A stretch of DNA of 64,000 nt, taken from assembly GCA_025738555.1 (NCBI GenBank), contig JAOVFP010000002.1:3596001-3660000 (forward strand), written 5' to 3'. Position numbers and translations under genes: made by a program. The stretch is from Cyathus striatus (taxonomy: Eukaryota > Basidiomycota > Agaricomycetes > Agaricales > Nidulariaceae). Under the pieces are notes generated by a model that saw only the letters and a list, made by a program, of their open reading frames with translations, was not told where the DNA came from and ran no database searches. This document shows positions 1,123 through 58,398 of this stretch, in pieces; position 1 is the stretch's first letter; every line of letters starts with the position of its first letter.

Positions 1123-2324
1123 ATGTCAATACTTGAAACCACATTCAAACCAGCTAATCCATTCATTTGGTCCCATTTACCCCACAGGAAAGAGGAACAC
1201 TCATGTAGATTTCAGCCCTTCTCCAATTTGGATTTGGGTCAGAAACCTTATGGTACAGGCTCCAAGCCTCAGCCCTCATCAAATTTAAAGTTGTGCATAG
1301 AGCAAGCACCAATGGCATCTATTTACAATAGCACAGCTTCACCACTGTTGCATTCACACATTGAATCTACAAATGTATTGGATAACACAACAACCACTCT
1401 ACATTCATATGTTCAAAATGGCACCAACTTCCATGCTGAGACATTCATGTCTCAGGTAAAATGGAAATCACCCTTGCAAGTGTGTCAAAGCATTCCTAAT
1501 TGGGAAGATGTTGTACACTATGCATTCACTGAACCTACCAAAGGATTTTCCACACTTTCAATCAACACAGTTTCATACCCCCATACAACAAATAGCAATC
1601 CTATAAAGCTATCTGATGAATGGACATGGAATGAATCAGTTATGCATACAAATCTCCGACATCTCTCAGGAGATTTAAATCATGATTCACCAAACACATT
1701 GTCCTCACCAATAGCTTGTAAATCCAGAGTAATGTCTTTGCCAAAACGATCTGCTTTTCTTAAACAGAAAATTTCTGGTGAAAACACAAAAGTTCACCCT
1801 AATAAAAAGCCAAGAGCAAATGTTCAAAACAGCCTTTTGGTGCTGCAAAAGTCAATTACTTCTCCCATGTCCAGAAGCAGAAGGGGGTGGCTCCAGACAA
1901 TGACAATACAGAGGAATACTGGGAAACAAAACATGAATCAGAAGGCATCACAAACAATTTATTTCAAAATAATGGTACCTGCACCAAAGACAGCAGTAAA
2001 CACCACGAAGGTCAAGTTTACATACCATTGATGGAATTCTGTGTTCAAGGCTGGAAAAATGATTTAGACTCATTGAAATATCTCAATGACCATGGCAAAG
2101 TCAGTAGTGGACCATGTAGGCAAATGCAAGAGTTACTAGATGTTCTGGAGGAGAACAAAGCTCATCCACAGCTGACAGCAGAATTGCTGTGTCGTGTGCA
2201 ACTGATGCGGTCTCTTCGCCCATTCCGACACAAAACCCAGTATGGTGTTGATGTGCGAAATGCAGTTGAAAAACTGTGGCGATACTGGAGAGAACACATA
2301 GCAAAGGGTTCAGTTACAATATAA
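1123..2324 (+). CDS. AT-rich hypothetical protein, C-terminal TFIIS-N/LEDGF-like helical domain
   Basis: I do not recognise this protein as a whole. The first ATG of the upstream frame is at 1123, and the frame encodes a low-complexity region rich in Ser, Thr, Asn and His. At a run of five G (1883-1887) the conserved-looking reading moves to another frame. One extra G would join the two halves into a single protein of about 400 residues ending at 2324. The last 100 residues are helical and well ordered, with Leu/Trp spacing (LLDVLEEN, then LWRYWREHI) that recalls the TFIIS N-terminal/LEDGF-type helical bundle; that match is by eye only. Base composition is clearly more AT-rich than every neighbour, suggesting a young, fast-evolving or transferred gene. 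An alternative is a pseudogene with a genuine frameshift. Confidence 0.5.
1883..1887 (+). other. Apparent one-base deficit at a G5 run
   Basis: Upstream frame (from 1123) and downstream frame (to 2324) are joined by adding one base at this G run. There is no GT..AG intron that does the same job here. Confidence 0.55.
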
Positions 2325-2918
2325 TAGTATCTGTATTCTGCACAAATGAATGGGGATGCAGGGATGAAGCGCGTAAAGGAATAAGTACTACGGTGAGACG
2401 GAAGTCAAGACTTAACCATGTTGATCGTCGATGATGATGCTGTGTATTATACCGGTGTGTAAATCGCGTATTTATAACGAATGTAATAAATGTACTTATA
2501 TTACTGAGCCTGAGCGAGACCTGTCTCACGGAATCACATAGTTCTTACTATATGAACGAAATCCGATCTACTTTGTAGATCCTAATCTTGGTACAAGACT
2601 AATAAATATAGGACAAAGATTGAATAACATTGAATACTATACACATAAAAATGCTCTGAGTCTATATGAGCCTGCATGGGGCATCTACAGTAATAAAAGT
2701 ACAAGATGTGCGATCACAAGCAGCCCCACTACGATGACGCAAGTACGAAGGACAAAAATTAAAAGCAAAATCCAAGCTTCCAGTATTCCAAAAAGTCATG
2801 ATTACTTGAAAAAGCGGTACTAACTGAAAGGTAAAATAAGAAGAAAAACGGCAACACGCGCAGAAGGATACCATCAATGTAAACAGAAATCATAAAAGTC
2901 ATAATGATAGAACAAAGA
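2325..2918. other. Intergenic stretch, probable shared 3-prime ends
   Basis: This AT-rich spacer lies between two convergent genes. Only short frames without family resemblance occur. It most likely holds the 3-prime untranslated regions and polyadenylation sites of both neighbours. Confidence 0.5.
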
Positions 2919-5450
2919 TCATGCAGCGGCAGCTACGGCACCAGTGCCCTCTTCAACCTTCCTTCTCTTCGTTGCTGGTCCGTCAGAGTCGGAGTCATCC
3001 ACAATAATAATGGGTGAGCCTGGATCCATTGGTACTGTACTTGTGTTTTCCGCCGATATAAGTTGTGTGGCAGTGAACGCCGGAGGAAGCGCCACTGTGG
3101 TAGGAGGAAGGAGGGAATGCATAGGAGCGCAAACCGGAACAGTGACAGGAGCTGCAGTCGGCGGAGGGCTCTGGACATTTGAAAGAATGCCGGGCGTCTC
3201 TGCTACCGCCACTCCTGAAGATGCACCTGAAGGCACTGTTCGCCTTTCCAGCGGCGTATTTGTGAACGGTGATCCACCGGGAGGTAGTTTCCTTGCAGCT
3301 CCACCACGACCTGTTCCCCGTGCTTTCCTCGCGCCACGGTCCTTTCCTCTTCCCCTCGCTCTTCTTTCCTTCAATGCACGAATCATATGATCAGTAAGCT
3401 TACCCAAAGCTGCCCTGGCACCCATCTTCTCCAGATCCACCAGCATCTCTTTCGTGAGACCCGAGAAAACGTCAGGATCTAAAATAAGCTTACGCTCATG
3501 AAGAACCATGTATCCCTCCTTTTTGGAATTGTTAGGGTGTGTGGGGGAGTAGTCTGGATGAGTAGGTGGAATAGGACCAAGGACGATAGGAATGACGACA
3601 TCCGGAACGGTAGGGTTTCCTGGCGGAGGTCGTAGTGGTGCAGTACCTGGTGCAGATGATTGGGTTAGAGTAGAAGTGGGAAGGGGATTCGGCGTAGTTG
3701 GTGTTGGTGTTGGGTTAGCTGTTGAAGGCGTAGCAGACGCAGCCGGAGTAGGTGTTGGACTGGCCGTGGTTGGAGCAAGAGGCACAGGCGTTTTATTCAC
3801 ATTTACAGTCCTAGCGCCTGAATGTAATGTCCAATGTGGCTGTGCCAACGCTGCGTACGGATTCTGTGAAGGTAAGGTCGCACCGGAACCATTCAAACCT
3901 TTTTGTTGAGGAGCTGTTATAGGGTGCGCATGATGAGGATGTGTAGGATAGGCAAAAATACCAGTTGCTGCAGGTGTAGTTGAAGATAGGCCACTTGTAG
4001 AAGGTGTAGGATTGGTTGTATTTGTGACTGACATGGCTACAGCTGTTGATTGTGTCTCCGACGGTGATGTCGTGGCAGGCTGGACAGTAGTCTTAAGTGG
4101 CAAAGGCCTTGACGTCAAAGGAGGTGGCAAGGGCGCACCCTTCACGTCTTTCACACTACGCCTAAGCGGAGGTTCCAACAACGAAGCTTTGTCTTTTTTC
4201 CTGCTGCCTCCTTTTCCTGCACCGTCCTTTCCACCAGAAGGTCCTTGTGCACCGTTGGCGGCCTGCTGCTGACTTCTTGATTCCTGCTCTTCCAATGCGT
4301 GGGCATTCTTCTCGTCGATTGACCAAAAGAAGCCTTTCCCTCTATCTCCGCCGCATCTTTCCATCTTAAGAAATGCGCGACCTGAAGAAAGGTTATGACG
4401 CACGGAGCTCTATGTGGGATAAGCGAATGAGTACAAAATAGAATGAAAGCGGAGGAACATACCATCCAAGCGCTGTCAGCATATTGGTAATATGGATGTG
4501 TGTTGGAAATCCATGTACAGATCTCTTGAAGTGTCGCTTTCCCACCCAATGCTTTGATCGCTCGGTAAATGAGCTGGGCATATGTTGCCTGAGGCTTTGG
4601 TGGGATATCCTCTGGCTTTGGTCGTTCGATGACGGGAGGAGGCTCGTGTTCGCCTTTCTTCCGCTTCTTTGAGTTGGGGTTCTTGTTCGATTTGCCAATC
4701 TGATTGGAATTGGGTAACTGAGGTTGGGGTTGGGGTCGAGAATCGGACGCGGGCGGCAAAGTGGGCGATAGGGGAGGAACTTTGACACGAGATGGCGGGG
4801 GAGGTGAATATGACAGGGGAGGAGAATGAGAAGGTTGAGAAGAGGGGGAGATACAGGAGGAGATATGGATGTGATGTCGACGGAAGGAGAGCGTGCTCTA
4901 TTTGCAGAGGATTGTGAGCTGGGGGAGGGAGTGTCGTCGGGTGGAGGAGGGGGAGGGAGAACGAAGTGGAAGACACGAGAAGCAATTTGTATCTGTGAAC
5001 TGTGGGGGGCGGGGAAGTGTATTAGGGTTCTTGCAAAGCTGGGGAGAAAAGACAGCGAAAGGAAGAAATAAGAAAGAAAGCGCACCGTTCACCGAGGGGA
5101 GCTCTTGTGCCAGAGGCAGACCAGACGCCATCTACCCAGGCGCCGTTTCTTCCTACGACGATGAGAACAAAGCGGTCCTCTTCCTGGTCATACTCGATCT
5201 TTGCGTGAAGGCGGGAGACGCTCTTAAGGGCGCCAAGGTCAACATCGACCTGCTGCTGCTCTGCGGTGGAGGAGGTGGGGGCGCTCGGGTTCTGAACGCA
5301 GCGACGACCGATGGTAATAGAGAGGGTCTGGACATAGAAGGTAAAATGGGGAAATACGAGGGAGTAGTAGGCGGATATCTTGTCCTGGACGGGAGGGTCC
5401 GCGGCAGAGAGCAGGGGTATGGTGGAAGCAGTCGACGAGGTGGGGTCCAT
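2919..5450 (-). CDS. FHA-domain forkhead transcription factor (Fhl1/Fkh-like)
   Basis: Predicted nuclear DNA-binding regulator. Exon 1 (5450-5086) starts at the only in-frame ATG and carries an FHA domain: the GRR core, then SRLHAKIEY and VGRNGAWVDG, the Arg, Ser-Arg-x-His and Asn-Gly positions that bind phosphothreonine. A Pro/Ser linker follows (exon 2 from 4999). The forkhead domain is split by a 53-bp intron (4410-4462): PPKPQATYAQLIYRAI and SNTHPYYQYAD before it, SSVRHNLSSGRAFLKMER and GKGFFWSID after it. The remainder is a long Pro/Ala/Thr/Ser-rich tail to 2919. FHA plus forkhead is the architecture of yeast Fhl1 and Fkh1/2. The linker needs one extra base at the G run 4844-4848 to stay open. 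The first exon is divergent from the MTFP1-like gene. Confidence 0.85.
4844..4848 (-). other. Apparent one-base deficit in the forkhead gene linker
   Basis: The exon that ends the FHA domain is open in one frame and the forkhead exon in another. A single extra base in this G5 (C5 on the coding strand) gives a continuous Ser/Pro-rich linker. The only obvious alternative intron, a CCT|gtcata donor to the AAAG acceptor, would be only about 36 bp. Confidence 0.6.
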
Positions 5451-5635
5451 TGGGGAGCAAGAGGGAGGAGGAGGAAGCAGGGGCGGGGCGGGGCTGGGGC
5501 TGGGGCTGGGAGGGTGCAAGTACGAGCGTCGAGGAGACGAGAGACAGAGGAGATTGGCAATGGTCACTGGCAGTGGAAACGTGCGAGGGGATCCTAGTGA
5601 CTCACGTGACCATCACACCCTCTCCGGCACGGCTC

Positions 5636-5690
5636 CTCTTCGCTTTTCTTACCCCCTCCCCTCTCTTTCCCTCTCTCCCCCCGCCCCCTT
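5636..5690 (+). promoter_or_regulatory. Pyrimidine-rich core promoter/5-prime UTR tract
   Basis: An almost pure C/T stretch immediately precedes the ATG at 5697. CT-rich tracts next to transcription starts are common in filamentous fungi. The 246-bp spacer is shared with the divergent forkhead gene, so this may serve both. Confidence 0.4.
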
Positions 5691-5696
5691 GTCCCC

Positions 5697-6478
5697 ATGT
5701 CCCCCTCCATCGTTGAAGCCCCCCTCCAGGCCGCAGAGGAAAAAGTCGACCAGCTCGCAGACAACGATGCCGCCACCACCGACTCCGAGATCCGCTACAT
5801 GGCATATGGCGCGCGCCTCAGGACCGCCCTCCGTGCCGGAACACGCTACATTGCTTATGTATGTCCCCGTCCTTCCCAACTTCCATCGCGCTCATCTCCA
5901 GGAAGACCAGTGACGTGGGCGAGGCATTCCGTCCAGTCGTCCCGCCATGGGTCGTCACTGCCGCCTATGGCGTTTCTTGGCTATACCTCTCAGGGTGCGT
6001 ATCCACCATCCTCTTCCAGGCCGTATCCTGAATCTCTGCATTCCAAGTGATGTAGGCTATGAATCCTACAAGGCACACCGCCGCGGTCCTTCCACTGACG
6101 AAGCCGCCTCCATGTCAGAGACCACTCGCATCGCTATCGTAGCCGCCCAGCGCGCTACTTTCCAATCCATAGCCTCCATGTTCGTCGTTTTCAATCCTCC
6201 ATGTCTCATTGTCATCTAATCTCTCATGTAGGGCCCTCCCAGCGTTCACTATTCACACCGCAGTCAAACAAGCCAAGAAGGCCTTCGTCAATGTCCAAAA
6301 TCCCAAACTCAAGATGTGGGGTCCAACCGTGTCCGGCCTCGCCATCGTCCCCGTCCTTCCTTACCTCTTCGATCATCCCGTCGAACATGTCACTGACCGT
6401 GCCTTTGACTGGATACGCGAAAAACTCATTGAAAGAGAGATGGCAAACAAGCCTGCCAAACCCAAGACCGAGTTATGA
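5697..6478 (+). CDS. Mitochondrial fission process protein 1-like (MTFP1/MTP18 family)
   Basis: Inner-membrane mitochondrial protein family linked to organelle fission and membrane quality control. Four exons (5697-5858, 5906-5994, 6048-6179, 6232-6478) give 209 residues, in frame throughout. The family signature is clear: RYIAYTSDVGEAFRP in the first third, the aromatic segment AAYGVSWLYLSGDVGYESYK, a helix with QRATFQSIASM, then ALPAFTIHTAV and a Pro-bracketed hydrophobic segment VVPVLPYLFDHPVEHVTD-like at the end. Length fits the family. The second intron uses an AAG acceptor six bases before an internal in-frame codon, so alternative acceptor use is possible. Confidence 0.85.
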
Positions 6479-6661
6479 CGCACCATTCCAGACTTATCCA
6501 CTCCAGAGCGGATATTACATCTGTATCATACCGTAACATTACCCAGCTCGCAATCTAATTAGAATGGCATATACCACTACATAATATTGTTACATCGTGG
6601 TTCCATTGTTCTTCTTGTCTACATCCCCAATAAGATATGCATAGCACATTCAAAATCCTGA

Positions 6662-8214
6662 TTACAGCGTCGACTTTCCCAGTGCCAAAGGTATCGAACT
6701 GATGCTACTCGGCGGAATCAGTCCCACCTCGGTAACCACAGCTGTAATAAACGTCGGAGGCGTAAGGTCATAAAGTGGATTTAATATCTCAAGGTTGGTT
6801 GAAGGCATCACGCTTATCGAGTCACTCGTTGAGCGGGTAATTTTCGAAGGTGCTATAAAAAATATCACATTTACGAACGTTCTTCGTCTTGAAAGACAAT
6901 TTCACTTACCCAGCTCATTTTTTCCAAACCCATCGACCATCACACCCTCACTAAATTTATACGTCTCGCAGCAGACCACCACCGGAACCCCGTGCCCTTT
7001 TGCCATCATCGCCACCAGTGCCGTTCCCGCACGAGAGTACACGGCTCCATTTGAAAACAGTGCATGTGCTCCAAGCAGAACGGTCGTCACTTCTGTCAGT
7101 AATGAAGGCAGTGCGGGAAGGAGAGCATAGGTGCACGGTATAGGATTAGGAGATGTGTTGGTAAGTGTTGTGAGAAGTGCTTTGCCTGTGCAAGCATGAA
7201 ACAGTCAGTTATTACAATGTATGAAATGTAAGAAGGTCAGACGACCTTCGAGTAAAGGTGGTGAATCTACCACTATGACGGAGAACTTCTTGCCCTCTTC
7301 ATGTGCGCGCAACAGCACTTTCTCGACAATTGATGATCGAGCAAATGCCAAGATAATATCACCATCTTTTATCTTCTTTCCGGCAAGATCCTGGATAACC
7401 TCATCCGCAAAGATAATGCGATCCCGGATGTAATTGTCAATCTTCTCACAAAGCGAATTTTTTGCCTGAAAAGGATAGTTCACTTGTCAGAAGGAGAATC
7501 TGGGAAGTGTGAATTGGCGGGCACACCTCTTGCTCAACCATATCAAAATCCACTTTACTAATCTCCAACTTTAGCTGTCGAATAGCATTTCCCATCGTCA
7601 CTGACATAGGTCTGGCGGCCACTAAGTGCGTGATTTGGGGAGAGAGATGGGTCATCAGATGGCGAGACAGAGAGCTTTGTGCAGGAGTGGTATAATCTTG
7701 GATGACCTACAAAAAATAGACTTAAAAAATACTGTATTCTTTCATGTACAAAACGCACCTTCTTGAACGCAGTGAGTGTAGCAATGGCCCTGGCATTGGC
7801 ACCACATATCCGGAACTCAGAAAATAATAACCCCAGTCTGATAATCGCAGGATGAATATCACCCTTCACTGTGTGTCCGACAGGCTTTGGCAGCCCAAAG
7901 TGCGAGAATATCTTCAATCCTCGAGGGATATTCTTGCTGTCCATGCCATCGTCATTCGCGTTACTGACGACATCTTTCACAGAAGACGGATGCTGCCTTG
8001 AACTGCCAGAGTCGCCCGCAGCAGGTTTCTTCTGTGGCGCGGCAGATAGCTTTGCCTTGGGTGGATTAGGCTGATCCTTCTGTGCTTGTTTAGCGGCGCG
8101 TTGGCGTTCTTGGAGTTCCCTCCGTTCCGCTTTGGTCATGGACTTCTGGGAGGGCTGTTTTGTAGGTGGATGAGGGGCAGAAGGGCCCGACTCTGAGGTA
8201 GTCGGCACAGGCAT
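6662..8214 (-). CDS. GCD2: Translation initiation factor eIF2B subunit delta
   Basis: Regulatory subunit of the guanine-nucleotide exchange factor that recharges eIF2 with GTP. Five exons (8214-7759, 7706-7527, 7465-7246, 7185-6910, 6852-6662) give 440 residues with no frame problem. The N-terminal 120 residues are a charged, low-complexity tail (KAERRELQERQRAAKQ). The eIF-2B fold follows: HPAIIRLGL, the stretch RPMSVTMGNAIRQLK, GDIILAFARSSIVEKVLLRA, FSVIVVDSPPLLEG, then the signature LLGAHALFSNGAVYSRAGTA and PLYDLTPPTFITAVVTEVG near the C-terminus. These match delta rather than alpha or beta, which lack the long charged tail. It is divergent from RAT1. Confidence 0.93.
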
Positions 8215-8528
8215 GGATTTGTCTGGTTGGGTTATAGGAGAGTGTAAAATAAGCTACGGTATGCGGCAGCGATGGTCGAGTACTCGAGTCAACAGATGTG
8301 ATATCAGATCACGTGGTGCTATAGGCAATGCGCTAGGAATGCATGGACAAATAAGAAAAGCCATTTTCTGACAATTCAATTCTTCATTTCACAGCTGTTT
8401 CCGTCCACGGCGGTCACGACTTTCACGACTACCACAACTTCCTAGCTCGACCACTTTCCTCTCCTCTTCCCCAGATTGTTTCTGTTCTATACTATTCGTT
8501 CGCTTCTTAGCACTCGTACTTTGCGAAT
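8215..8528. promoter_or_regulatory. Divergent promoter between eIF2B delta and RAT1
   Basis: The 314-bp spacer separates two start codons facing away from each other. It holds no open frame of note. A CT-rich tract near 8395-8520 precedes the RAT1 start and probably contains its transcription start. Confidence 0.5.
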
Positions 8529-11500
8529 ATGGCACGTCATACTCTCTCAAGCGCTCATTTCCACTCGCTAACTATTCTACAGGGTGTCCCCGCACTTTTT
8601 CGATGGCTAAGCAAGAAGTACCCTAAAATTAGTGAGCGATTTCGTCCTTTAATACTGTGTTGTTCTTAACTGGTCATCTAGTTTATCCTGTTGAAGAAGA
8701 GGACGAAATCAAGGTCCCTGGTGAAGACGGTCAAGACGTTACCATTCCTGTTAATATGGCACAGCCTAATCCAAACGGCGAGGAGTTCGACAATCTGTAT
8801 TTAGATATGAATGGAATTGTGCGCTCCCAGTTGTTATTCTACCGCTTAGCTCTCTTATATTATGCCTCCAGGTTCATCCATGTACACATCCTGAGGGAAA
8901 GGTATGTTTCTTATTGCACATATTGGAACGACAAACTAAAGTCATGATTGTCTTTGTAGCCAGCTCCGGAGACCGAAGAAGAAATGATGCTGGAAATCTT
9001 TAGCTATACTGAACGAGTCGTAAACATGATTCGACCCCGTAAGCTATTATTTATGGCTATAGGTTCGTTTCTTCTGTCCTTAATACAATTGATATGGGGC
9101 TCATAGCTTGATCAGACGGTGTCGCTCCGCGTGCAAAGATGAACCAGCAACGTTCACGTCGTTTCCGGTCTGCTCAAGAAGCGAAAGAGAAAGACGAAGC
9201 ACATAGGGAAGCGTTAGAGATGTGGAAAGGTCTGAATCTCTTGCATTTTGCCGTTGAAAGGTGCTAATTTTTGAGTAGCCATGGGAAAAGAGGTTTCCGA
9301 AGAGGAGAAGAACAAAAAAGCATGGGATTCTAATGCCATTACACCTGGTACACCATTCATGACTCTTCTTGCTGTGTCGCTGCGTTATTGGGTTGTTCAA
9401 AAAATGAATACGGACCCAGGTTGGAAAAATGTACGTTCTCAACTTAAACTACGATCTACTTCATAACATGCCGTTTCAGATACAAGTCCTCATATCCGAC
9501 GCAACTGTTCCTGGTGAAGGAGAACACAAGATTATGGACTACATTAGACGACAACGTAGTAATCCCGGTCATGACCCGAACACTCGACATGTTATCTATG
9601 GATTGGTACGTGGAAAGGGTGATTTCTTTCGTTCTTGATGTTAAATATAGCCTCCCAGGATGCCGATCTTATCATGCTAGCACTAGCCACACATGAACCG
9701 TACTTCAGGGTTTTACGAGAGGACGTCTTTGCGAATGATACTAGTCCTACTGCATGCCGTATGTGTGGTCAAGAAGGCCATTATGCCGCACAATGTACTG
9801 GCACAAAAGCAGAAATACAGAAAAAACCTCCGTCACAGAAAAAGCCGTTCATTTTTCTCGACGTTGCGATCCTGCGCGAGTATCTTGAAGTGGAACTTGA
9901 CGTTCCTAGTTCACTAATGCCATTCAATTTGGAGATGGCTATTGATGACTGGGTTCTCCTCATTTTCTTCGTAGGAAATGATTTCCTACCTCACCTTCCT
10001 TCTCTTGAGATTCGTGAGGGTGCTATTGATACATTGTTGAAGATCTGGAAGACAGAGCTTCCGCGGATGGGTGGATATCTTACAAACCATGGTCAGATTG
10101 AGCTGGCTCGAGCGCAGATCATCCTTGAGGGGCTTGCTAAAAGAGAAGATGAGATTTTCAGACGCAGGCGTGAAGGTTTGTCCTATCATTCTTCATTTCC
10201 TACATCCTTACGTTTCGTTTAAGTGGAGTCCTAATTAATTGTCCCGTTATAGCTGAAGAACGCCAAGACCAAAATGCCAAACGCCGGAAGATTGAACAAG
10301 AAGCTCGAAAGAATGCTGGCGGTCCTTCTTCTGCACTTGGCCTAACATCTGGCCCTACAGCGCCTTCGTCGTTGCATCCTTCTCTTCCCCAGCGACCTGA
10401 TTTTGCTGCTAAGGCTGACTCTATCGGTCTCGGTGCAGCACCCACACCTCAGTCGATCCAAGCAACTCCTACTGCCGCGCAAGCTCTTGCTGGCTCAAAC
10501 CGAGACGTCGTTGCAAACCGCCGTGCAATTCGTATGGCAAATATGAGCGCTGCGGAGGTGCTAAAAGCTGAGCTTTCGGGTTTATCACCTGTTAAGCCTT
10601 CCGCTTCGCTGCCAGCAAAACCGGCTGCTGCAGAATTGCCGCCATTATCGGCGTCCCTGGACGCGTCAAGAATGAGCAAAGCTAATATCGATAACGACGA
10701 AGTTCCAGGTTTTGGGACTCACGCCCGTAAGTCCAGCATCCCTTCAATGAAGCCATCAACGACCGATAATATGTCGGAAGTCACCGAAAATGAGATGGGC
10801 CCATTTGAAAAACCTGACGCAAATATGACTGACTCTACCGTTCCAAACGGCGACAAGGATGCTGACAATTCTGTGGCAGGGTCTAAGCGTTCCTTTGAAG
10901 AAGGCCCTGGTTCTACAGAAGGTGCTGATGAAGATGTTGTCGTAGTTGAGGAAGATGACGATGATGACACTGTCGAAAATCAAACGCGTCTCGCCCTCAA
11001 AGTAAATGCTGACGGAACAGTAGAGCAAGAGGATACAGTCAAGTAAGCTTTATATGAATATTCCAATGAAGTCTGACTTATGTTATATGACGTTTAGACT
11101 ATGGGAACCTGGATATAAGGAACGATACTACAGACAGAAATTTGGTGTTGAACTTTCCGACACGAATTTCCGCAACCAGTAGGCAACAAATGTACCATTA
11201 TCCTTTAATTTCTAACTTATAAAAATAGGTTAACAAAAAGTTATATAGAAGGTTTATGCTGGGTATTACATTACTACTATCAAGGGGTAAGTCGGTTATG
11301 ATACGATTGATTTCATAAACCTGACGATATCACATAGACCCCGTCGTGGCAGTGGTATTACCCATATCATTTTGCTCCATTTGCAGCCGATTTTGAGGAA
11401 GTTGATAAAATGGACATCACGTTTGAAATCGGACAACCCTTTAAACCATTTGAGCAACTGATGGGTGTATTTCCTGCAGCAAGGTGCGTTTATGTGATTC

Positions 11501-12756
11501 AAGTTCTTCTGCCTTGGAAATTCTAATAAACTCGACATAGTCGGAAACACATACCTGAAGTATTCCAACGCTTTATGGTAGAGGAAGATTCTCCCATTAT
11601 TGATTTTTATCCACCAACGTTCGAAATCGATATGAATGGAAAACGTATGGCCTGGCAAGGTGTTGCCCTTCTACCATTTATTGACGAGAAGCGTCTGCTG
11701 GATGCCATGGCACTCGAGTACCCTAATCTTACAGAGGAGGAACTCAAACGAAATCGTTGGGGGAATGATGTTATTTTTGCTTCGGATGAACATCCTATAT
11801 ATCCGTTCTATGAATCTCTCTATGGGAAGAGAAAAAATCAAGATGTACGGTTTTGTTTACTCTGTTGTTTTGTAAACTAATTTGTTAACTCAGCCGGTCC
11901 CCATCAATATTAACCTGAGCAAAGGTATGAGTGGAAGTGTTCTTCCTAATCCAGAGTGTCTACCAGGGTCAACCTACTATTGCCCTTTACCTACGCTCGA
12001 CCTACCTGACATAAAAAACGACCGATCTCTCTCAGTGCTATACTTCTTCCCAAAACAACTTACCCCCACCGATCAGTAATTTTAACCGGAGTAAAGAGAC
12101 CGCCTCGTGTCCTTTCAGCAAACGATCTCGAAGTAACTCGAAGCGGAGGACGAGGTCGCGGGCGCGGGGGGTGGGATCGTGGTGGCACTAATTCTGGAAG
12201 AGGGGGTGGGTGGAATAGCGGGGGACGAAATGATCCTTTCCACTCACGTCCTACTAATTATGGTGCAAATCAGAGTCATGGTCAAGGCAATTATGGAAAT
12301 GACCGCCCAGCTAATCGAGGATACGGTGGACGTGGGGGGAATACGTACCAGCAGAATTCTTACCCAGCACGGCCTCCGTATCAGTCCCAGCCGGCTTCTC
12401 AAGGCTATGGCGGCTATGGCAGCCAAGGAAATAATAGCGGGAGCTATGGTGCTATCAGAAGTACTCCTCCTAGTCGTTCTCAGTATCCTGTCAGTGGAGG
12501 ATACGTCGATACTCAACGGGGTGGAGGTTCGAATTACAATTCATATACGCACTCTGTACCTCCCTCAGGATATGGGGGGTACGGTGTAACTGGTAATACG
12601 ACCAACTTTGGCGGATACGACCAGAACCAAAGAGGCTATGACAACGGAGGACGTGGAGGCTATGGTGGACATGGTACTTCTCAACAGCAGAGTTACGGTG
12701 GATATCAGTCCAGAGGAGGACCCCCCGCTCGTGGCCGTGGAAGAGGTGGTTGGTGA
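8529..12756 (+). CDS. RAT1: 5'-3' exoribonuclease 2 (Rat1/Xrn2/Dhp1)
   Basis: Nuclear 5'-3' exonuclease that terminates RNA polymerase II and processes rRNA and snoRNA. Fifteen exons: 8529-8531, 8583-8631, 8682-8818, 8872-8901, 8960-9062, 9116-9229, 9279-9430, 9480-9605, 9659-10175, 10253-11042, 11098-11178, 11229-11286, 11338-11483, 11541-11844, 11894-12756. The first intron has a GC donor directly after the ATG, giving [11 protein letters not shown]. Catalytic-core motifs include [36 protein letters not shown] and [14 protein letters not shown]; the CCHC knuckle [14 protein letters not shown] marks Xrn2 over cytoplasmic Xrn1. The tail is a Gly/Tyr/Arg-rich repeat region. After PKQ near residue 930 the frame breaks at a C5 run (12063-12067); one extra C restores PHRSV and makes the summed exons divisible by three (1157 residues). 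Confidence 0.95.
8532..8582 (+). other. GC-AG intron directly after the RAT1 start codon
   Basis: ATG|gcacgt...ctacag|GGTGTCCCC. The GC donor is the only site that yields the conserved [11 protein letters not shown]; the nearby GT donor breaks the frame. Confidence 0.75.
12063..12067 (+). other. Apparent one-base deficit in RAT1
   Basis: Conserved reading up to FFPKQLTP is followed by a stop in frame, while the downstream frame reads [17 protein letters not shown], a known Rat1 C-terminal stretch. One extra C at this run joins them. No intron fits. Confidence 0.75.
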
Positions 12757-29973: not shown

Positions 29974-32142
<2,169 letters not shown>

Positions 32143-33027: not shown

Positions 33028-36000
33028 ATGAACAAAAATCCCTTTGTGCCCCAGCCAAGTTTCACCCCACAGCAGCCCCCGCTCCCTCCAGGCCCACCCC
33101 CCCCTCAACCCACCCAGCCCGATTATTCTGCCTATTGGGCTGCCGCCGCTGCAGCAGGCCAACAACCACACGTCCAGCAACCCCTTGTTCCCGGCTATAA
33201 TCCTCAGTGGAGTGCTCCCCAGCCCCCTCGTCCCCCTCCAGAGCAAAGTGCCCTGTATGCAAACTACGGCTATGGCCATCAGCAGAACCATTGGCAACGT
33301 CAGCAACAGCAGCAGCAACCTCAACAACAACAGCAATTCCATCCTCCCCCACAAGTTGTACAACCCCCTACAGGGCCTGCAGCCGCCCAGCCTGGATACA
33401 ATCCTTATCAGCCTACCGCTGGCTATCCTCATCAATATGTCCCTCAGACCATTGCCCCCCTCAACCTATAGCGCAACCTGCCTATCCCCATCCCCATCCA
33501 CCTCCTCAGCCCCAGCAGCCCTTCTTTGCCCCTCATATGCAGCCCCCCCAATCTCAGCAGCAACAGCAACAGCAGCAACGCACAATCCATCACACACCCC
33601 CACAGCACATGCCCCCCGCCAAGCGTCAGCGTTTTGATGGTCCTAACAACAATCGGCAAAATCAGCATCCCCCTCCCCCTCAACCCCAATTTCAACCACC
33701 CCCAGCTCCTCCTCAGAATATCAACTTCTCAGGTCCCGGTCATGGTCAGAATCGCACTGGTGCGCCTGGAGGTGGTGGCGGACAGATGGGAGGGGGGCGT
33801 GGAGGTCCAGCAGGTGCCCGCGGGGGGATGGGAGGCGGACCACGTGGAGGTCGAGGCTCGATGTCCGGCAATAGGGGTGGCGGTCTTTCTGGGCGCGGTC
33901 GTGGAGGTGGAGGAAGCGGATATGGTGGTGGTGGTGGTGGTGGTGGTGGCAGCAGCGGAGGAGGAGGAGGAGGAGGAGGAGGAGGAGGAGGAGCAAGCGG
34001 AAGTGGCCGAGGCGGTAATCAGTCAAGTGGTTCGTTACGTGGTCACAACTCCAGAAGTAACTTTGGAGGAAATAAGGACTTTCACAATCGGCGTGGAGGT
34101 TCTTTTACTGCTGGCGGTGGTGGAGGTTATTCGCACCAAGGATCTTTCACAGCTCGTGGTCGTCATCAGGGATCGAATAGGGCTGCAAGACATGACGGAG
34201 GTGGAAACGCTTCGTTCAATTCTCGTGACGGTGCTGTATCCTCCAACAGCGTTGGAAAGAAAGATGAAAACAGACGCACGTTAACCGACTTTAAGATTGT
34301 TGGATTGGAGATTCATGATTTCCGTTGGTCTTGGGGTGTGTTACCTTCCTCGATTTCGGTGAAGGCTGAAACTACAGATACGACCACTGACACGACCAAT
34401 GTGAATGAGAATCCTATCAAAGATGAGGTGATGGACGATACTCACTGTCTGGCTGCTTCGGTCTCTGCATCTGTCAAGAATGAGGCCACATCTGATGTAA
34501 AAGCTGGAATTAACTCGATGAGCCAGACAGGTGGTGCACATGCTACTGACCCATCTACCGAGTCGAAGGCATGTACGGTGGCGGTAGCGGTATCAAAGTC
34601 ATCGACGGGTGTTAATGGTGATTCTCCTCCTCCTTCTCGTATGCGCATCTATTTCCATACTCCCGTTACGGCTGACGATGCGCGCCCTATTCCACATCAT
34701 TCTTCGTTTAATTATGGGGATGGTTCATCTTCTGAGACCCGCAAAGGAAAGAGGAAGAAATTAGAAGATGATGATGGAGACCTAGAGGAGGGAAGGGCTC
34801 CCCCACCCCCTCCACAGATGGCCAGTGGTGCTGATGATCGCTCCAGCGTAGCTGCTAGTGTTGCGCCCAGCATTGCAGAGACGGGTAGTGAACCCGACTG
34901 GCTCATGGAGGCAATCGTAGAAGGCGAAGAGGAGGCTGAAGCAGAAACTGCTCTGCATCCAGAGGACGCGGATGAAAATCATGAGCAGGTTCATGCGAAT
35001 GATACTACTACAGCTGACGAGCACGATGATCATATAGCTCATGGAGATGGAGAGAATGCACTTGATGGTAAGCATCCCTTGTATTGATTCGAGATACTGT
35101 GCATTGGCGTGAAGCACCCTCATCTCGGCCTTTGTTGGTCGGAGAGGCCATCCGTGGCGCACACTGCTGACTTGGTTTTCATTTTTTTTATTTTCTAAGG
35201 CGCTGTTCATAACGATATGGATATGGCAGTCGTGCCTGAGCATGGTGCTCAGCAGCCGTCCGCCGCTACTGGTGGCGATGCTAATCATATGCCCGCTGAA
35301 GTTGGAGCATCTGTGGCACCTAATGGCGGCGTTCCTTCCTCTGGTGCAGATTCTGCAAAAATTTCTGCCAGTGGGCATGATGATACTGCGTCTTCTACTG
35401 AGCAGCAGGAAAAAGTGCAACCTATATCGTCCGCAGATAATGATGTTGCTATTGAGCCGTCTGCGTCTGCCATTGCTGTTTCTGATTCTGATTCCTCTTC
35501 TCAACCTGGTTCCTCGTCTGATGCATCTGTGTCCGTGTTTAATGTTATCTATAGTTCTCCGCCTAATCCTCACGCGCATTTGTACAGCTTAAAACAGTCG
35601 GCTGATCTTAATATGCAGGTTTCAGAACAGGCCCTCAGTTCTCAAGAGAAGGTGCCAGAGCTTTCTCAAGACTCCATTGTTTCCGATGCAATCAAGCAAG
35701 AAAAAGAATGCGAAGATGGGACGTTCCCGACGCATTTGACGACAATGCTACTCAAGCTACGCAACCAGCAGATATGGATGAATCCCAAGACCATCTTCCC
35801 GAGCCACCAGCTTCGACTTCCTCAACATCGCCATGTGAGGCTTCGCCTTCCTTGCCTCCTACCAAGCCCAACGTGAAGAAGGAGAGAACACCGTCTGCAA
35901 ACCGGCTGTCCATCTCCTATGCCGCCGGAAATCGACGCCTTGTAATTGATGCCGAAGTTGTTGAAGGCCTCAAGCTATTCCGTCAAAGCGGTCGCGTTGA

Positions 36001-41988: not shown

Positions 41989-44900
41989 ATGTCCAGACAC
42001 AGAGACATCCGCAACCTCAACATACAAGGTCAGCACCTCCCTCTGTTTCCTCGCCGACTCTCACTTCATCCATCATCTCCCAGATGAACTCCAAGACGAT
42101 GCCCTGTCCGATGGCGCAGACGACATGACCCCAGAGCAGCACGGTATGCATCCTTCTTTCTCCCTTTGCTTCTCAATCCCATCTCCTTCAAGATCAGATG
42201 ATCGACGGCTTGGAACATGTACGCCAGGTCATTGGGACGGAGAGTGTCTCCGCCATCCCAGACAGTGCCATTCAAGATGTCCTCTGGGAGACTTACTTCG
42301 ACGTTCAAAGGACGGTCGAATGGGCACTTGGTGTGTACCCCTGTCTGCAGCAGTATATACTGCCAGTTAACGAGAGCAGAGGAGCAGGAGCGTAAGAAGG
42401 CTGCAAGAGAGCGTAAAGGTAAGCTTCCGTGCCATTCTTTCCTCATTCGTACCTTTTGCGTCCTTTACTCCCGCCCACGTCGTCCATGTGTTCCGTTGCC
42501 TCTGAAATCATGTACTCAACTGAAGGTGCATTATTCATCACCCCTCCTAGTCCCCCAAGTCTAATGTTCTATGCATATACTTACTGCGCAATTCGGTCAG
42601 ATAATTTCGGAGACGATAATACTGGCGCTGAAGAATACTATCATGGCTACCCGTATAACGCCGCAGATGCTGGAGAGCTACGGCCTGGAGTGCCAAAGAT
42701 AATGTTGGCCCAGCAGCAAGGGAACATGCATCCGGAAATGCTGTCGCCATCAGTAGAGGACAGACGGTTGAGTACCATTACCGAGAGGACTGAATATACC
42801 GAAATGACTCCTCATTGGCGTACACGGAATCTGGGAGGCTATGCAGCTAGCTCAAGTGACTCTACTTCATATGGGCAGGTCGTCGGTACGTACCCCGTGG
42901 AATTACTTGATAGGAGTGAACGTTGAAGGGCTTGTATAACCAGACACACGGCATCGCACGTCTCAAGCAAGAATCCCTACGGATTCTCCTATTGATCCTA
43001 ATCTTATTCCTGTATCTCCTTCAGGTTCTGCAGTGCAGCGACTTTCAGTGTATGAACCACCTCCTTCCAATACACCTTCCGAGTCTCGAAGTCCCCGATC
43101 AACGCCTATTCGTCCACCAAGTGTAACAGTTCCTCCAGAAGAAACTCTTCCTGATATCCCAGATTATAGTTCGAGGAAGAGTGACGCTCCACTTCCGGTC
43201 CCTGACCCTATTCCTGTACCCATCCCACCAAAGAGATCTAAACTTGCATCGCTGGCAAGTTCAAGATCAAGTGCCGTTAGTCTAACGGAGAGCTCCAGGT
43301 CGTCAGGGACGTCTTTAACGGGTTCTATCAAGACCTTTCCTGCTCTTCGCCCTTCTGCTCAATCAGAGAAACCGCCAAGTTCGGACGGAACACCATCTGT
43401 AGTGTCGAAGAGTCTTCCACCTTTACCGTCCCGAGCATCAAGTATTACACCATCCTCTACATCTGCTCATGTACGTAGAGCAATTGAAGCTGCAATGCAA
43501 TTGGAAGCACTAGATAGAGGAACTCCAAAGCCAGAACGACAACTGTTCTCAGAGAGTTCACCAAGCTCCAGACCTAGTTCTGAATCTTCGAGGAAAACAC
43601 CGACACCTCGCCCACTCAGTACTCTTTCTCGACACAGTCCTACAGATGGATCTAATTCGAAGCAGCATCCTACCGAATCTCAATCTCCGAAGAGTGGTAC
43701 TCCTGAGCCTATCGCGTCCCTCCCACCGACACCTACTATTAAGGCACCTTCTGGTCGAACACTTTCCAAGTTAGCATTGCTAGCTCAGGCGAAGCAATCC
43801 AAGATAGACCCAAGGAACGCGCCAAAGTTACCTAAAACAACGACGGAATATCTTACCCCGATCGCGAATGGATCATCTGTGACCACGGCCATAACAACAT
43901 CTTATCAGTCACTATACAGTCTCACAGATCCCTCTAAGCCAGCGATCATACCTAAGTTAGATGTAGTTCCTTTGGGTGCAGTACCTCCGCCCAGGCCTGA
44001 AGCTAAGCAATCTAAATTAGCACAGAAAATTCGTAAGGCGCAGGAGAAACACAACGAAGTTCCTCGCGAAGAAGTACCTCCGCAGGTCGTCCCACCAATT
44101 TTCAAGGCGACGCAAAGTTCTGCTCGTGCGTCGCCTTCTGCGTTCGCTTCTCTTCTCATAAGTGACATCTATGAAGGTTTGGATTCTGGCGTTAGTAAAG
44201 ACAAGCCCAGAGCAGATGATAAGAAGACATCGTCTGCTAGATCTGTATCAATGGAAACCGTGGATAGTCACCCAAACCGTCGTCTCCGTACCAGGCGGTC
44301 AGTTGTGGTACCTGAAATATTTTCTTCATCAGGATTTGCATTCGATGCCCCAGTCCCGATGATATCGTCTTCAATGCGCGTAAAGGCACGTCGCTCGCGC
44401 AACAGAAGAACACAACGTCTTCCTCCTCTCGTGCGAGCGCAGGAAAATCTTACCCTTCTAAAGCCTGATTATATACTTTATTTATTTTTTGGACTTGTTT
44501 TGGTTCGTATATTTATTTATGATATTTATTTTTTCTATTCAGCCGCGAGGGAACAAGAGAAGGTAACGAAGTTGGCTCAGCAAAAAGCTACGGCTCTTGC
44601 TACATCGAGGATTCCTAAAAAATCTGCAAAAGCAACGTCGGGAAAGCCTACGTCAACATCCAGCGTAACCAGAGGTCTTGACGCTCGCCAACTTGATATC
44701 GCTGGATTAAATCTGGGTCCCAAGGAGGAGGAACAAGTTCAGGAGGAACCACCGAATATTAAATTTGGAAGAGAAAAGTTACTAACCGAAGCCAAACGGG
44801 TTCTCGAAGAAGAAAGTCAACAAGGGAAGAAGCGTGTTGCGATTGTCGTTATCGGTAAGCTTGTTCGAATTGGTGAGGGGTCATCCTGAATTCTCGCAGG

Positions 44901-46770: not shown

Positions 46771-48753
46771 CTATTTCTTATCCCCTGATTTCTCTTTATC
46801 GTGGTGGAAAAGGTTCTTCACTTTCCCAAATATTGATTGTCGCTTCTTGCGCGTAGAGGATGTCGTACCAAATTTAGAGGATGATGCAGAAGGAGAAGGA
46901 GAATTGGAGCGAGGGAAAAATCTCTTAGTTGGTGTAGAAGGGGTGCTTCCGGTGGTATCTTTCTTCGTACTCGAAGGTGTAGGAGGGGGGGATGAGGCGC
47001 CATTCGTAGAGGTTTCTTGGCGGGCGTTGTAGGTGGTTCAACAACGACTGGCTTGTTGGGTATAGGAGCAGAAGCATCGGTGGCACCAGCATTAGCGGAT
47101 GGTTCAGAGATAGCAATACTAGAGACAGGAGGCAGAACAGAAACGGAGGTCTCGGCCTCGGGTGGCTGCGCCGCTTCGGCCTTTGCTGAGCCGTTGGTCG
47201 CCACCTCAGCAGTACCGTGCTCTTTTTCTTTCTCTTTCACCTCGGGTACTGTCATCCTCTCTATTACTGGCTTATCAACAATTGGTTCAGCCACAGAACC
47301 TACTGTTGAGGACCCGACGATGCCAACGGCAGGGACAATGTCGATATGTGTAGAAAGCTTCTCTGGAGTAACGAGCATCTCTACCTTCGGCTGAGAGGCG
47401 CCGGGAGCAACCAACACTGCTTCTCTTGTTGGGAGGGAAGAAGGGTCCAAGTCAATAAAATTCTCTGGAGAATTGACTATAATCTCAGGTGGTGAAGATG
47501 TCCCCTCTTTTATTACTGGCTTATCAACAATTGGATCAGCCACAGAGACGTCGGCAGCGGGCATAACGGCAGTATGTGTGGAGGGCTCCTCAGGAGCAAC
47601 AGATGCGTTTAAGTTGGGCTCGGCGACACTAGGATTAGCCACTGGGACTGCTCCACGTGTTGTGGGGGAGGACAGGCAAGTTGGCTCTGTGTTGTGCTCT
47701 GGAGCATTGACCGGTACGATTGTGGTCGGTACTCCCGAAGCTACTGGAGAAGGGATATCCTCAGCCCGGGAGAGAGATTCTTCTGGATGAGATATGGGTA
47801 TAGAATCGGGGGTCTCTAAAAGCTCTTGCTTGGCTTCGGGTGCTGGAGTCTCTGGTTGTGTAGACGGACCATCGAATGCTTTGGCTGTGACCGAGGTTGG
47901 AATAGCGATCTATTGCAAGAAACACCATTAGCCTCTGTCGGCAATAAACCAGAATAAGCCATACTTGCTCAGGATTCACTGGATCGACACCAATGACGCT
48001 GTGCACGGCAGCACCGATTCCGGAAGCTACATAAGAAAATGCGGAAGAGGTGCCATCGGCGGCAGCAATGGTGGTAGCAATATCTGAAGTCAATTGAGGA
48101 AACGTTGCCGGAGGGCTAGGGACCTTTGCTTTCTGCTCACTGATAATCACACCGTTTTCTATTTTGTGATTTGAATTCTCAGTTGTGTCGGCGGTGCCGC
48201 TGGAAGAGGTGGAGTCGGCATTTGCCTTGCTTGTGGTTGTGACAGGCTGCATGGGGTTTAGAGGGTCGAGTGGTTTGGGTGAGGTATGATGGCCTGCGAC
48301 AGAGGCGTCCTGGGGCGTATTGAAGGGGGATTGCGGGACGGCAGCAGGAGGAGGGCTTAGAGGAGAAGAGATGGCTTTGTGCGGGGCGGTATAGACGTTA
48401 TTAATGAAACCTCCCGGATCAACGTCTGTAGGAAGGTCATCGCGGAAGACCCACTGTCCGTCGACGATGAACTTGTACTTTATTTTGTCGCCATACGGGA
48501 TCTTGATGGTAGCCTCAAAACCGGTGGGGGTCTTGGAAAGGAGAACGGATCTGGACCACTGGAAGGTAGTTAGAAGTTAGAATAGAAGGAAGAAGAGAAG
48601 GCCTTACCTGGTCGAAAGTGCCAGTGACAATGACGTTGTACGGTTCTGTATGAGGCCTTGCAATTGATTTGGAATAAGGCTTGGACTAGGACTAGGATGA
48701 GGCGGAGGTGCTTACCACTGGAAGAGGACCTCGTGCAAGTCGGGCGAGTCCAT
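46771..48753 (-). CDS. CBM48/AMPK1-CBM domain protein (Crp1/Mdg1-like)
   Basis: Four exons start at 48753 (48753-48716, 48656-48608, 48558-47965, 47909 onward). The N-terminal 90 residues form an AMPK-type glycogen-binding domain: LHEVLFQWPHTEPYNVIVTG, FDQWSRSVLLSKTPTGFEA, IPYGDKIKYKFIVDGQWVF, DPGGFINNVY. A long Pro/Glu/Val/Ser-rich disordered region follows, containing the duplicated peptide PIVDKPVI. The last 25 residues are basic (RKKRQSIFGKVKNLFHHDKEK), as in yeast Crp1/Mdg1. To reach them the frame needs one extra base at the T3 run 47013-47015 (A3 on the coding strand). Yeast relatives bind cruciform DNA or act in pheromone signalling; function here is not known. Confidence 0.8.
47013..47015 (-). 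other. Apparent one-base deficit (CBM48 gene)
   Basis: Coding strand AAGAAACC: adding one A gives AKKTSTNGASSPPPTP and an open frame to the basic C-terminus at 46771. Without it, the frame continues as an unrelated Leu/Pro/His-rich sequence. Confidence 0.6.
47261..47545 (-). repeat. Internal direct duplication in the CBM48 gene
   Basis: A 36-bp segment at 47261-47296 and a nearly identical one at 47510-47545 differ at very few positions and encode the same PIVDKPVI peptide about 80 residues apart. Flanking residues are also related (STHxxxxPA before each), suggesting that a larger unit was duplicated. Confidence 0.75.
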
Positions 48754-55612: not shown

Positions 55613-55712
55613 CGTGCTTAGTAGCGTACGGTATACTCTTGCTAAAATTTACTATTAGAGCTAAAATAACGTGGAATAATAATGTGTTGTCCTGCAGCGC
55701 ATATATGAATTA

Positions 55713-58398
55713 TTATACGGATGCACGATATAGAGCAGCGTATGGTCCATTCTTTTTCATTAGATCTTCATGAGTGCCAAACTCCGATATTGTCTAGAAG
55801 ACAGAAATTAGTATTCCTCGGATAATCAGTAGATGACTGTTCATTTACCCCGTTCTCCATCATTGCAACTTTATCGGCACGACGAGCAGTAGAAAGCCGA
55901 TGAGTGATAAATATAACAGTCTTGCACCTTCCACCAGCGGGTGCCTTGGAAAGTCTTTCTATCGTATCAAATATTTGACTCTGAGCGTGAGCGTCGAGGG
56001 ATGAAGTCTGACAAAAATCAGTAACACGGAGCTGTGCAATAAGTTGCACACATACAGGCTCATCGAATAAAAGCAAATCAACATCAGGATCACCAGCCCT
56101 CATAAAGGCCCGAGCAATCGCAATCCTTTGCCACTGCGAAAGTAGTTCAGCAATGAGGAATTGAATAAACACGGGAAACGCACCTCTCCTCCAGACAATC
56201 CGTGTCGATTCGAATGATAATATGAGCCCATACTACCAGGATAAGAGACCGACTCAAACCCTGGACTCTCAAGGTGTGTCTTGAGACCATTTGGCAGAGA
56301 TTGCACGACATTATCTGCCTCTGCAAGGTGGATAGCTTCCTCAATTAACTGCCGATGGCTCATCTTCTCAATGTTACCAATTCCTACGTTCTCCTTGACG
56401 GTAGAGCTAAATTTAGAGAAGCCTTGAAATACTGCAGTTAGGTGGCGGTGATAATCCACAGGATTGTAACGACGGATATCAACTCCATTACAAGTAGGCT
56501 GCCACGATCAAAATCCACGATTCTAAGCAAGATCTTTGCAAGCGTGGATTTTCCTGTTAAGTGTTAGCAACAGTTGATCACTGTGCAAAGGATTTCTGCA
56601 CCTGAGCCATTGTAACCTACAACTGCGAGTGTTTCGCCTGCATTGATAGAGAAGTTTATGTTTTTCAATGCTGGCTCGTGGCTACCGGGATAGGTATACG
56701 AAAGTCCTCTAATTATAACATTCAGACATACTTTAAGCGCAGTCAGTGTCCTAACACATACCTAACATCAAATTTCATGCCGCCGGACTTTGAGCTATAC
56801 ATAACGGTATCATCAAGCCTCGGCTGCAACCGAGGTTTAATTTCATGCTTGCGCAAAAGGCGGACATTAAGAAGATTCCCTGGAATGCCATTTTTGTAGT
56901 GGTTACCAAATTCCGCGATGCGAACAGCAAGGCCTGAATGGAGCTCCGGTATGCAGTCAAGGATCCCAAAGAGGCAGCTGATGTTTGTAGGAGGAGGAAT
57001 AAGGGAACCTACAAGAATCATCCAGGATTAGAAATGATAAAGACCACAAACAAAATGAACTCGCGTTTTGCAAGGCAAAGAAGAATTCCGAAAAATTAAA
57101 GTGTGCCCATGAGTTTTTCAAATAATAGGGTTGTTCCGATGCTAGTACTATCTTTCTTGCGTTTGACCAGGACTTCAAGATCCAATCTCCCAGACCAAAT
57201 AACGCGATTTCCGGTCGGTAGATATCGCAATAGGCAAGATTACGCATCCTTTCTTGGCGATCTGCCGCCCGCGCCTCTTTTGCACTAGTAGGGGATTCTG
57301 CCGGATCTGGTAAACGAGAGCACCAGGTTACTATGAGCGGGAGTAGTACGGAAAAGATTGAGAGCACGAGAACGAAGAAGTGAGTGGCTCCGCGTGTAAG
57401 GGATACTATGAGAAAAATATGGGAGGCAATTTCGGTGATAAGAGAGAGGATATGAACGAAATCCAGCGGGGACAGAATTCCAAAGCCTCCTCCGCTGAAG
57501 GAACGCGCAAAAAGATCTGACTCATGAAGAAGATCGCGAACGACTGGATCTGAGAGTGCGGGGACATCCAACCGAACGCGGTGCTCCATTTGCTTGTATT
57601 CGACAAAAAAGCGTGCGGAGCCCATGACGACATTTTCATTCGATGCACTAATGCGAAAAGATCCAGGTCAAAGCGTCAAGGTACGTGAAACTTTAAAAAA
57701 GAAGAAAAGACTCACGCAAAGGAGTCCAACAGTCCCTCAATGAACCTTCTGAGGATTTCCGTTGAAATCAAGTAAAGAAGACGGGACCATGTGAAACTCT
57801 CTGATGCAATCAAAGACTGAAGCTATCGAGAGAAAGACAATTTTAGTTACCTCTCGCTTCCCAAAAGGTACACGAACCTCATCAACTATCAATGCCTGAA
57901 AAAGTATTAGCAACCAATGTTCAATGTCCAAGGGGGTTGCAAAAGCTACCAACCTGGGAGTATCCGCGGAACGCTGGAAACAGACTGCGCACGATATTCA
58001 GGGCCATCATGAGCGTTGTTCGCAGAGGGTTCAGTCCCCATAGAACGCTTAGCTATGTCCAGAAAATAAATCTCAGAAAGATGGGGAAACTAAAAAAAAG
58101 GGGACCAGGGTCATACAAAGTCTAGCGTACATGTCTGAGCAACGAAGAGAGCGCGTTTAGCATTTTCCAACGTCAGAGGTCTGGGTGCACCCGGGACAAG
58201 ATGAGAGCCCCTTTGGCCAGGTAGTTCTCTGGAGGACAACCAAGCGTCATAAACGGCATCTGGGCCAGAGGTCTTACTGGGCTTCATGGAGGCAGGCTTG
58301 GGCGGGATCTGGAAGTCTGTAGGAAAGAGCAAACGCCGGGAATTGAGCCTCTGACGCATGCTCGAGGAGCAACTTGAATAGGCCTTGGGAACATGCAT
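55713..58398 (-). CDS. ABC half-transporter, ABCB-type
   Basis: Membrane transporter with one membrane domain and one ATPase domain. Assigned exons include 58398-58117, 58052-57954, 57895-57851, 57822-57716, 57647-57061, 57008-56762, 56708-56602 and downstream ones to 55713. Membrane segments include LSVLWGLNPLRTTLMMALNI and ATHFFVLVLSIFSVLLPLIV. The ATPase carries Walker A GYNGSGKSTLAKIL (split by an intron), Q-loop VFQGFSKF, signature HGLSGGEWQRIAIARAF, Walker B VDLLLFDEP and switch His in FITHRLSTARRADK. An extra base at 56488-56489 is needed to read LLVNGVDIRRYNP. The 5-prime end is not resolved; an ATG at 58476 may be the true start. Substrate is unknown. Confidence 0.82.
56488..56489 (-). 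other. Apparent one-base deficit in the ABC ATPase domain
   Basis: Coding strand CTTGTAATGGAG: adding one A gives LLVNGVDIRRYNPVDYHR, the expected ABC A-loop-to-Q-loop segment, and joins two frames that otherwise cannot be spliced. Confidence 0.65.

What the first reader, a model, noticed from the sequence alone, without database searches (positions are those of the whole stretch)
1883..56489. Eight genes are each exactly one base short, always in the same direction
Reconstructed frames break at 1883-1887 (G5), 4844-4848 (G5), 12063-12067 (C5), 33455-33460 (C6), about 35718-35720 (G3), 44348-44351 (C4), 47013-47015 (T3) and 56488-56489 (T2). That is eight sites in seven genes plus the orphan. 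Every one is repaired by adding a base, never by removing one, and most lie in C/G runs. Several genes are essential in fungi (RAT1, HBS1). This pattern fits systematic undercalling of homopolymers in the assembly, so automated annotation will truncate or split these genes. Eight independent pseudogenisations in otherwise intact genes are far less likely.
Basis: partly seen in the sequence, partly recalled or inferred. Interest (0 to 1): 0.75.

Follow-up and report, generated by a model that had tools for sequence, protein, structure and literature searches.

The report
One-base assembly errors breaking fungal genes
In this stretch of a bird's nest fungus genome several ordinary genes each lack one letter, and intact versions of three of them in another genome of the same species show that these are almost certainly mistakes in the assembled sequence and not new biology.

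Summary
At all eight places the best coding frame changes, always as if one base were missing. Proteins from another Cyathus striatus assembly run straight across the four sites I could test, without an intron: site 3 (RAT1), sites 4 and 5 (one unnamed gene), site 6 (HBS1). A frameshift-tolerant gene finder with equal costs for missing and extra bases found 4 missing and 0 extra in 35.8 kb of window coding sequence (penalty 1e-4); spike-ins show no bias towards missing bases.

Small consensus errors are the best explanation. Systematic homopolymer undercalling is only partly supported: two of the four confirmed sites fit a C run, two do not, and run lengths in a 200 kb sample are not truncated. 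The same genome has a one-base deficit in a chaperonin gene whose near-identical second copy is intact and a one-base excess in a PKA-type kinase gene, so the direction is not universal. The window is not significantly worse than other sampled sequence (p = 0.12). Null alleles in one nucleus of a dikaryon are not strictly excluded. Verdict: ordinary assembly artefact.

The parts
1883..1887 (+). Site 1: frame break in an unnamed ORF (about 925-2324)
   Evidence: Frame preference changes by one base short, but all frames score below the intergenic model; only a sub-threshold TAF2-like match (0.0091); no gene called here by my gene finder. Weakest site.
4844..4848 (-). Site 2: frame break upstream of the forkhead domain in a forkhead gene (called 2919-5450)
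   Evidence: Forkhead PF00250 1.6e-10; gene finder places a missing base at 4843 at all four penalties 1e-3 to 1e-6; best frames differ. No homologue tested across the site.
12063..12067 (+). Site 3: frame break near the C-terminus of RAT1/XRN2 (called 8529-12756)
   Evidence: C. striatus P0001 (99% identity) is contiguous across it, offset 9281 to 9280.
33455..33460 (+). Site 4: frame break in an unnamed conserved Agaricomycete gene (called 33028-36886)
   Evidence: C. striatus P0121 contiguous across it, offset 33022 to 33021; gene finder 33455 missing base at all four penalties.
35718..35720 (+). Site 5: second frame break in the same gene
   Evidence: P0121 offset 33195 to 33194 with one unmatched residue between; gene finder 35719 missing base at all four penalties. 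The residue at the broken codon does not fit a longer G run.
44348..44351 (+). Site 6: frame break in the N-terminal half of HBS1 (called 42198-46504)
   Evidence: C. striatus P0241 (97%) offset 42490 to 42489 with one unmatched residue between. That residue does not fit a longer C run.
47013..47015 (-). Site 7: frame break in the C-terminal tail of a gene with a glycogen-binding (AMPK1_CBM) domain (called 46771-48753)
   Evidence: PF16561 1.5e-11; gene finder 47010 missing base at all four penalties; LLR +29.5 upstream, +15.4 in another frame downstream (the upstream piece was a training seed). No homologue tested across the site.
56488..56489 (-). Site 8: frame break inside the nucleotide-binding domain of an ABC transporter gene (55649-57021 called, probably longer)
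   Evidence: ABC_tran 9.8e-5 just upstream, slightly under its curated cut-off (23.4 against 25 bits); ABC transporter chains in the PDB match directly downstream in the other frame, best 8.6e-9, although Pfam gave no family for that piece or for the 26-aa piece between; best frames differ.
33541..33548 (+). C7 run where the other C. striatus assembly appears one base shorter than the window; its model P0121 leaves the frame for about residues 177-202
   Evidence: Offset 33015 to 33016, then 33057, that is a model intron of about 41 bases in window coordinates that the window does not need.

Best explanation
The eight frame breaks are single-base omissions in the assembled consensus of a Cyathus striatus-like genome, not features of the living genome. 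Shown: the frame shifts, their common direction in the window, intact frames in another assembly at sites 3 to 6, and breaks of both signs elsewhere in this assembly. Inferred: that the base was lost in consensus calling or incomplete polishing of long reads, perhaps helped by collapsing two diverged nuclei of a dikaryon into one sequence, and that C/G runs are one risk context but not the only one.
For: 4 of 4 sites tested against same-species proteins are intact there. Six genes and the orphan in 64 kb are hit by the same tiny lesion; in the ranges compared with C. striatus proteins no other disabling change was seen. The scan with symmetric costs gives 4 missing, 0 extra in 35.8 kb of window CDS at penalties 1e-4 to 1e-6; spike-in recovery with the right sign is 22 of 40 for removed and 27 of 40 for added bases. 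The chaperonin gene on C3 is one base short while its 99.6% identical copy on C10 is intact. A PKA-type kinase on C5 is one base long. Published parallel: a nanopore-only fungal assembly had insertions and deletions breaking many conserved genes until short-read polishing (PMC7500977, passages seen).
Against: No reads are available here, so error is not shown directly. The genome is not uniformly poor: I saw no clear break in the listed HSP70, glucan synthase, AMP-binding and sugar transporter matches (only 15 of 102 and 9 of 173 candidates were scored for the last two), and one 10 kb haplotig pair has no one-base gap. The sequencing technology of this assembly is unknown to me. Sites 1, 2, 7 and 8 were not compared with a same-species protein.
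Confidence: 0.93

Rival explanations
1. Real one-base deletion alleles carried in one nucleus of a dikaryon and covered by intact alleles in the other nucleus.
For: The genome holds diverged second copies of some stretches (C1/C19 95%; C3/C10 97.6-99.6%), as in a dikaryon; the congener C. olla is reported as a dikaryon with 5.97% heterozygosity (PMC11186289, passages seen). A null allele in one nucleus could persist; the chaperonin pair would look the same under this reading.
Against: Six genes and an orphan in one 64 kb stretch, all single-base and one direction, with no other disabling change seen in the ranges compared; far above a load I would expect (judgement). No second copy of window 1401-13400 was found to compare.
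Confidence: 0.05
2. Recoding: programmed -1 ribosomal frameshifting or RNA insertion editing restores the proteins from DNA that truly lacks a base.
For: All window breaks have the sign that -1 frameshifting or one-base insertion would correct.
Against: Another assembly of the species encodes the uninterrupted proteins at 4 of 4 tested sites; the chaperonin copy on C10 is intact; the kinase on C5 has the opposite sign.
Confidence: 0.01
3. Misread gene structure: short introns or overlapping frames, not missing bases.
For: Introns here are about 50 bases, and my gene finder can bridge sites 3, 6 and 8 with GT-AG introns.
Against: Those introns would delete residues that the C. striatus proteins retain at sites 3 and 6; the gene finder prefers a missing base over any intron at sites 2, 4, 5 and 7 down to a penalty of 1e-6.
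Confidence: 0.01

Closest known systems
Indel errors in long-read assemblies that fragment genes (for example Drechmeria coniospora nanopore assemblies, PMC7500977, passages seen; Kastor, PMC12007338, start of abstract seen in the listing only)
   Same: Small length errors in otherwise intact conserved genes; frames recover when compared with relatives; annotation is split or given false introns.
   Different: In the nanopore study long-read polishing left more insertions than deletions; in this window all eight are deletions, and several lie outside long runs.

Membership tests
Long-read assembly indel artefact | Intact frame in another assembly of the same species | tested here: met
   4 of 4 sites tested, of 8
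Long-read assembly indel artefact | Single-base size | tested here: met
   Offsets change by exactly one at sites 3 to 6
Long-read assembly indel artefact | Similar breaks elsewhere in the same assembly | tested here: met
   Chaperonin at C3:6051258; kinase at C5:4716308
Long-read assembly indel artefact | Reads disagree with the consensus | not testable with these tools
   No reads held; the technology of this assembly is unknown to me
Systematic homopolymer undercalling | Errors concentrated in runs | tested here: inconclusive
   Sites 3 and 4 fit a C run; sites 5 and 6 do not; sites 7 and 8 are T3 and T2
Systematic homopolymer undercalling | Run-length distribution cut off above a threshold | tested here: inconclusive
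   Runs of 7 or more against runs of 6: window 11:53, 200 kb sample 84:158 (p = 0.006), C3 stretches 6:14 (p = 0.22); the sample itself shows no cut-off
Systematic homopolymer undercalling | Only deletions | tested here: not met
   One-base excess in the C5 kinase
Programmed frameshifting or RNA insertion editing | DNA of the species lacks the base | tested here: not met
   P0001, P0121 and P0241 read through sites 3 to 6

The most novel reading that the evidence does not exclude
Some of the one-base deficits are genuine null alleles in one nucleus of the sequenced dikaryon, so that genes such as RAT1 and HBS1 are supplied by the partner nucleus, a sheltered load that would make the two nuclei depend on each other.
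Probability: 0.04. Interest if true: 0.55.

Novelty: not a real feature. Interest (0 to 1): 0.12.

Why it matters
For users of this assembly: six of 25 gene-like segments that my gene finder called in this stretch would be truncated, split or given a false intron by automatic annotation, and claims of gene loss or pseudogenes from it should be checked against reads. It has no wider biological meaning if the artefact reading is right. If the sheltered-null reading were right it would bear on why dikaryons persist.

Tried and rejected
Looked for a second haplotype copy of window 1401-13400: only 58-base repeat hits on C3 and C10 (the tool did not list the query's own place). The first frameshift-tolerant gene finder, trained on my own ORF guesses, was insensitive (in one search four seeds held stop codons) and gave doubtful calls: extra base at 5474 and missing base at 14767, missing base at 7528 and extra base at 29398. 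Retraining on exons confirmed by C. striatus proteins plus long ORFs removed them at penalties 1e-4 and below. At 1e-3 the retrained model adds one missing (17304) and one extra base (5474) in the window, not counted. One search was an unused draft script.

Controls at 1e-3 are noisier: one extra and one missing base in L033, two extra in L034, one missing each in L037 and L038, three extra in L001, two extra and one missing in L002; the 200 kb sample was run at 1e-4 only. The extra base called in L001 (XRN1 on C1) and the missing bases in L018 and L030 at 1e-4 were not checked further.

Run-length truncation as proof of undercalling: inconclusive. The 14 one-base gaps between haplotigs may mostly be true heterozygosity; I did not use them as error counts. 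In some searches frame switches were read by eye from adjacent rows; one SNF2 pair (C5:4549496-4550508) is ambiguous, the repeated SNF2 copies on C5 1.56-2.10 Mb were left out, the kinase search scored 120 of 552 candidates and its list was cut off. Pfam found nothing for several pieces. Papers: passages of PMC7500977, PMC8480192 and PMC11186289 seen; others only in listings.

Full report
What the sequence is. The window is G000:C2:3596001-3660000 of a 107.45 Mb genome in 24 contigs. The tool names no organism. RAT1 in the window is 99% identical to a Cyathus striatus protein, and C. striatus is also the best hit for the two other genes searched. The three proteins are listed on a contig of the same length, 1,009,077 bases, presumably one contig. 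Published C. striatus AH 40144 has 91,180,015 bases in 1562 contigs with a largest length of 2.13 Mb, from Illumina and PacBio (table in a passage of PMC11186289; GenBank JADNRW000000000, passage of PMC8480192). Contig C1 here has 8.66 Mb. So this is a different assembly of the same or a very close species, a decayer of wood (PMC8480192 passage).

The observation. Three-frame views show the coding-like frame switching at each. Scored with a coding model against an intergenic model, sites 2 to 8 have a positive best frame on either side and the two frames differ; site 1 scores below zero in all frames but shows a preferred frame on each side. In all eight the switch corresponds to one base too few. 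The coding model was trained on the window itself, so this is a consistency check and not an independent test. The sites fall in six genes plus the orphan: forkhead (site 2), RAT1 (3), an unnamed conserved Agaricomycete gene (4 and 5), HBS1 (6), a gene with a glycogen-binding domain (7) and an ABC transporter (8).

Same-species test. I had three protein searches and used them on RAT1, the gene with sites 4 and 5, and HBS1. Placing the C. striatus proteins on the window by exact words gives diagonals that shift by exactly minus one at site 3 (residue 928), site 4 (residue 145), site 5 (residue 841) and site 6 (residue 619), with no gap that could hold an intron. That is 4 of 4 tested. In the ranges placed the other offset changes are multiples of three (some of them introns), apart from one stray match of a repetitive RAT1 tail and one exception: near window 33544 the window is one base longer than the C. 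striatus model P0121, which leaves the frame for about residues 177-202 and returns through a model intron of about 41 bases, while the window stays in frame. There the other assembly, not this one, looks one base short, or the strains differ. The rest of RAT1 and of the site 4/5 gene was compared only by tblastn blocks, and the GTPase half of HBS1 not at all, since P0241 ends before it.

Not simply homopolymers. At sites 3 and 4 the residues fit a C run that is one too short. Sites 7 and 8 are T3 and T2. Across a 200 kb sample from 20 contigs the run-length distribution falls without a cut-off and reaches 17. The window has relatively few runs of seven or more compared with that sample (11 against 53 runs of six, versus 84 against 158; p = 0.006) but not compared with 32 kb of C3 (6 against 14; p = 0.22).

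Is the direction real, and is the window special? I wrote a two-strand hidden Markov gene finder with introns and with equal costs for a missing and an extra base. Trained on exons confirmed by C. striatus proteins and on long window ORFs, it.8 kb of coding sequence in 25 segments of the window with four missing and no extra bases (sites 2, 4, 5, 7) at penalties 1e-4 to 1e-6; at 1e-3 it adds one of each. At sites 3, 6 and 8 it prefers GT-AG introns of 80, 56 and 53 bases, which the C. striatus proteins contradict at sites 3 and 6: a direct demonstration of how annotation would be misled. In a control, random one-base removals were found with the right sign in 22 of 40 cases (wrong sign in 2) and additions in 27 of 40 (wrong sign in 2), so the method is not biased towards missing bases. 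In control sequence of the same genome (86.9 kb called coding, some of it transposons and some of it paired haplotigs) it found three missing and no extra bases at 1e-4; the window excess, 4 of 7 events, is not significant (p = 0.12). That control leaves out L001, L002 and L039: at the same penalty one extra base was called in L001, none in L002, and one in L039, which had been chosen for its break. At 1e-3 the controls give calls of both signs (listed under tried and rejected).

Other breaks in the genome. Domain surveys by profile, read by eye for adjacent matches too close for an intron, gave two clear cases. A chaperonin (TCP1) gene on C3 is one base shorter than its copy on C10; the two stretches are 99.6% identical and the C10 copy is intact over the stretch where C3 breaks. 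A PKA-type kinase on C5 is one base too long, at a two-T place (relatives). So this assembly has one-base breaks of both signs.

Ploidy. C1/C19 (95%), C3/C10 (97.6-99.6%) and, by equal or near-equal domain scores, C23/C24, C15/C24 and C17/C23 carry second copies, as expected if the two nuclei of a dikaryon are partly kept apart and partly collapsed. No second copy was found for window 1401-13400, the only part searched. Collapsing diverged nuclei could raise consensus errors; this is inference.

Conclusion. Nothing here is biologically new if the artefact reading is right.

Noticed in passing
window 42198-46504 (HBS1): The C. striatus model P0241 (658 aa) and many Agaricomycete entries stop before the GTPase part, while other species have models of 1101-1518 aa; the 658-aa form ends at a stop at about 44466, inside what would be an intron. 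This resembles an HBS1/SKI7-like pair of splice forms (recalled, not tested).
   Followed up: no
window 33541-33548: The other C. striatus assembly appears one base shorter in this C run and its gene model leaves the frame, so it may carry similar errors.
   Followed up: partly
window 33028-36886: Several relatives of this unnamed gene are annotated as proteasome subunit alpha type 1 or are models that include proteasome domains PF00227/PF10584: a neighbour-gene fusion spread through annotation, or a real adjacency.
   Followed up: no
G000:C23:219724-395307 and C24:1294502-1494674: Matches with equal or near-equal scores at a nearly constant offset (about 1.07-1.10 Mb) suggest an unmerged overlap or haplotig between these contigs; C15/C24 and C17/C23 show similar pairs.
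   Followed up: no
L029 (G000:C19:1000001-1010000): Repeat sequence, mostly 89-98% identical to copies on eight other contigs among the listed matches.
   Followed up: no
G000:C5:1565267-2095287: Several SNF2-helicase-domain copies, most with stops inside the match (often TGA; some may be introns), clustered in half a megabase.
   Followed up: no
L035:9040 (G000:C3): A T14/T13 tract differs between the two haplotigs, showing that long runs are present in this assembly.
   Followed up: no
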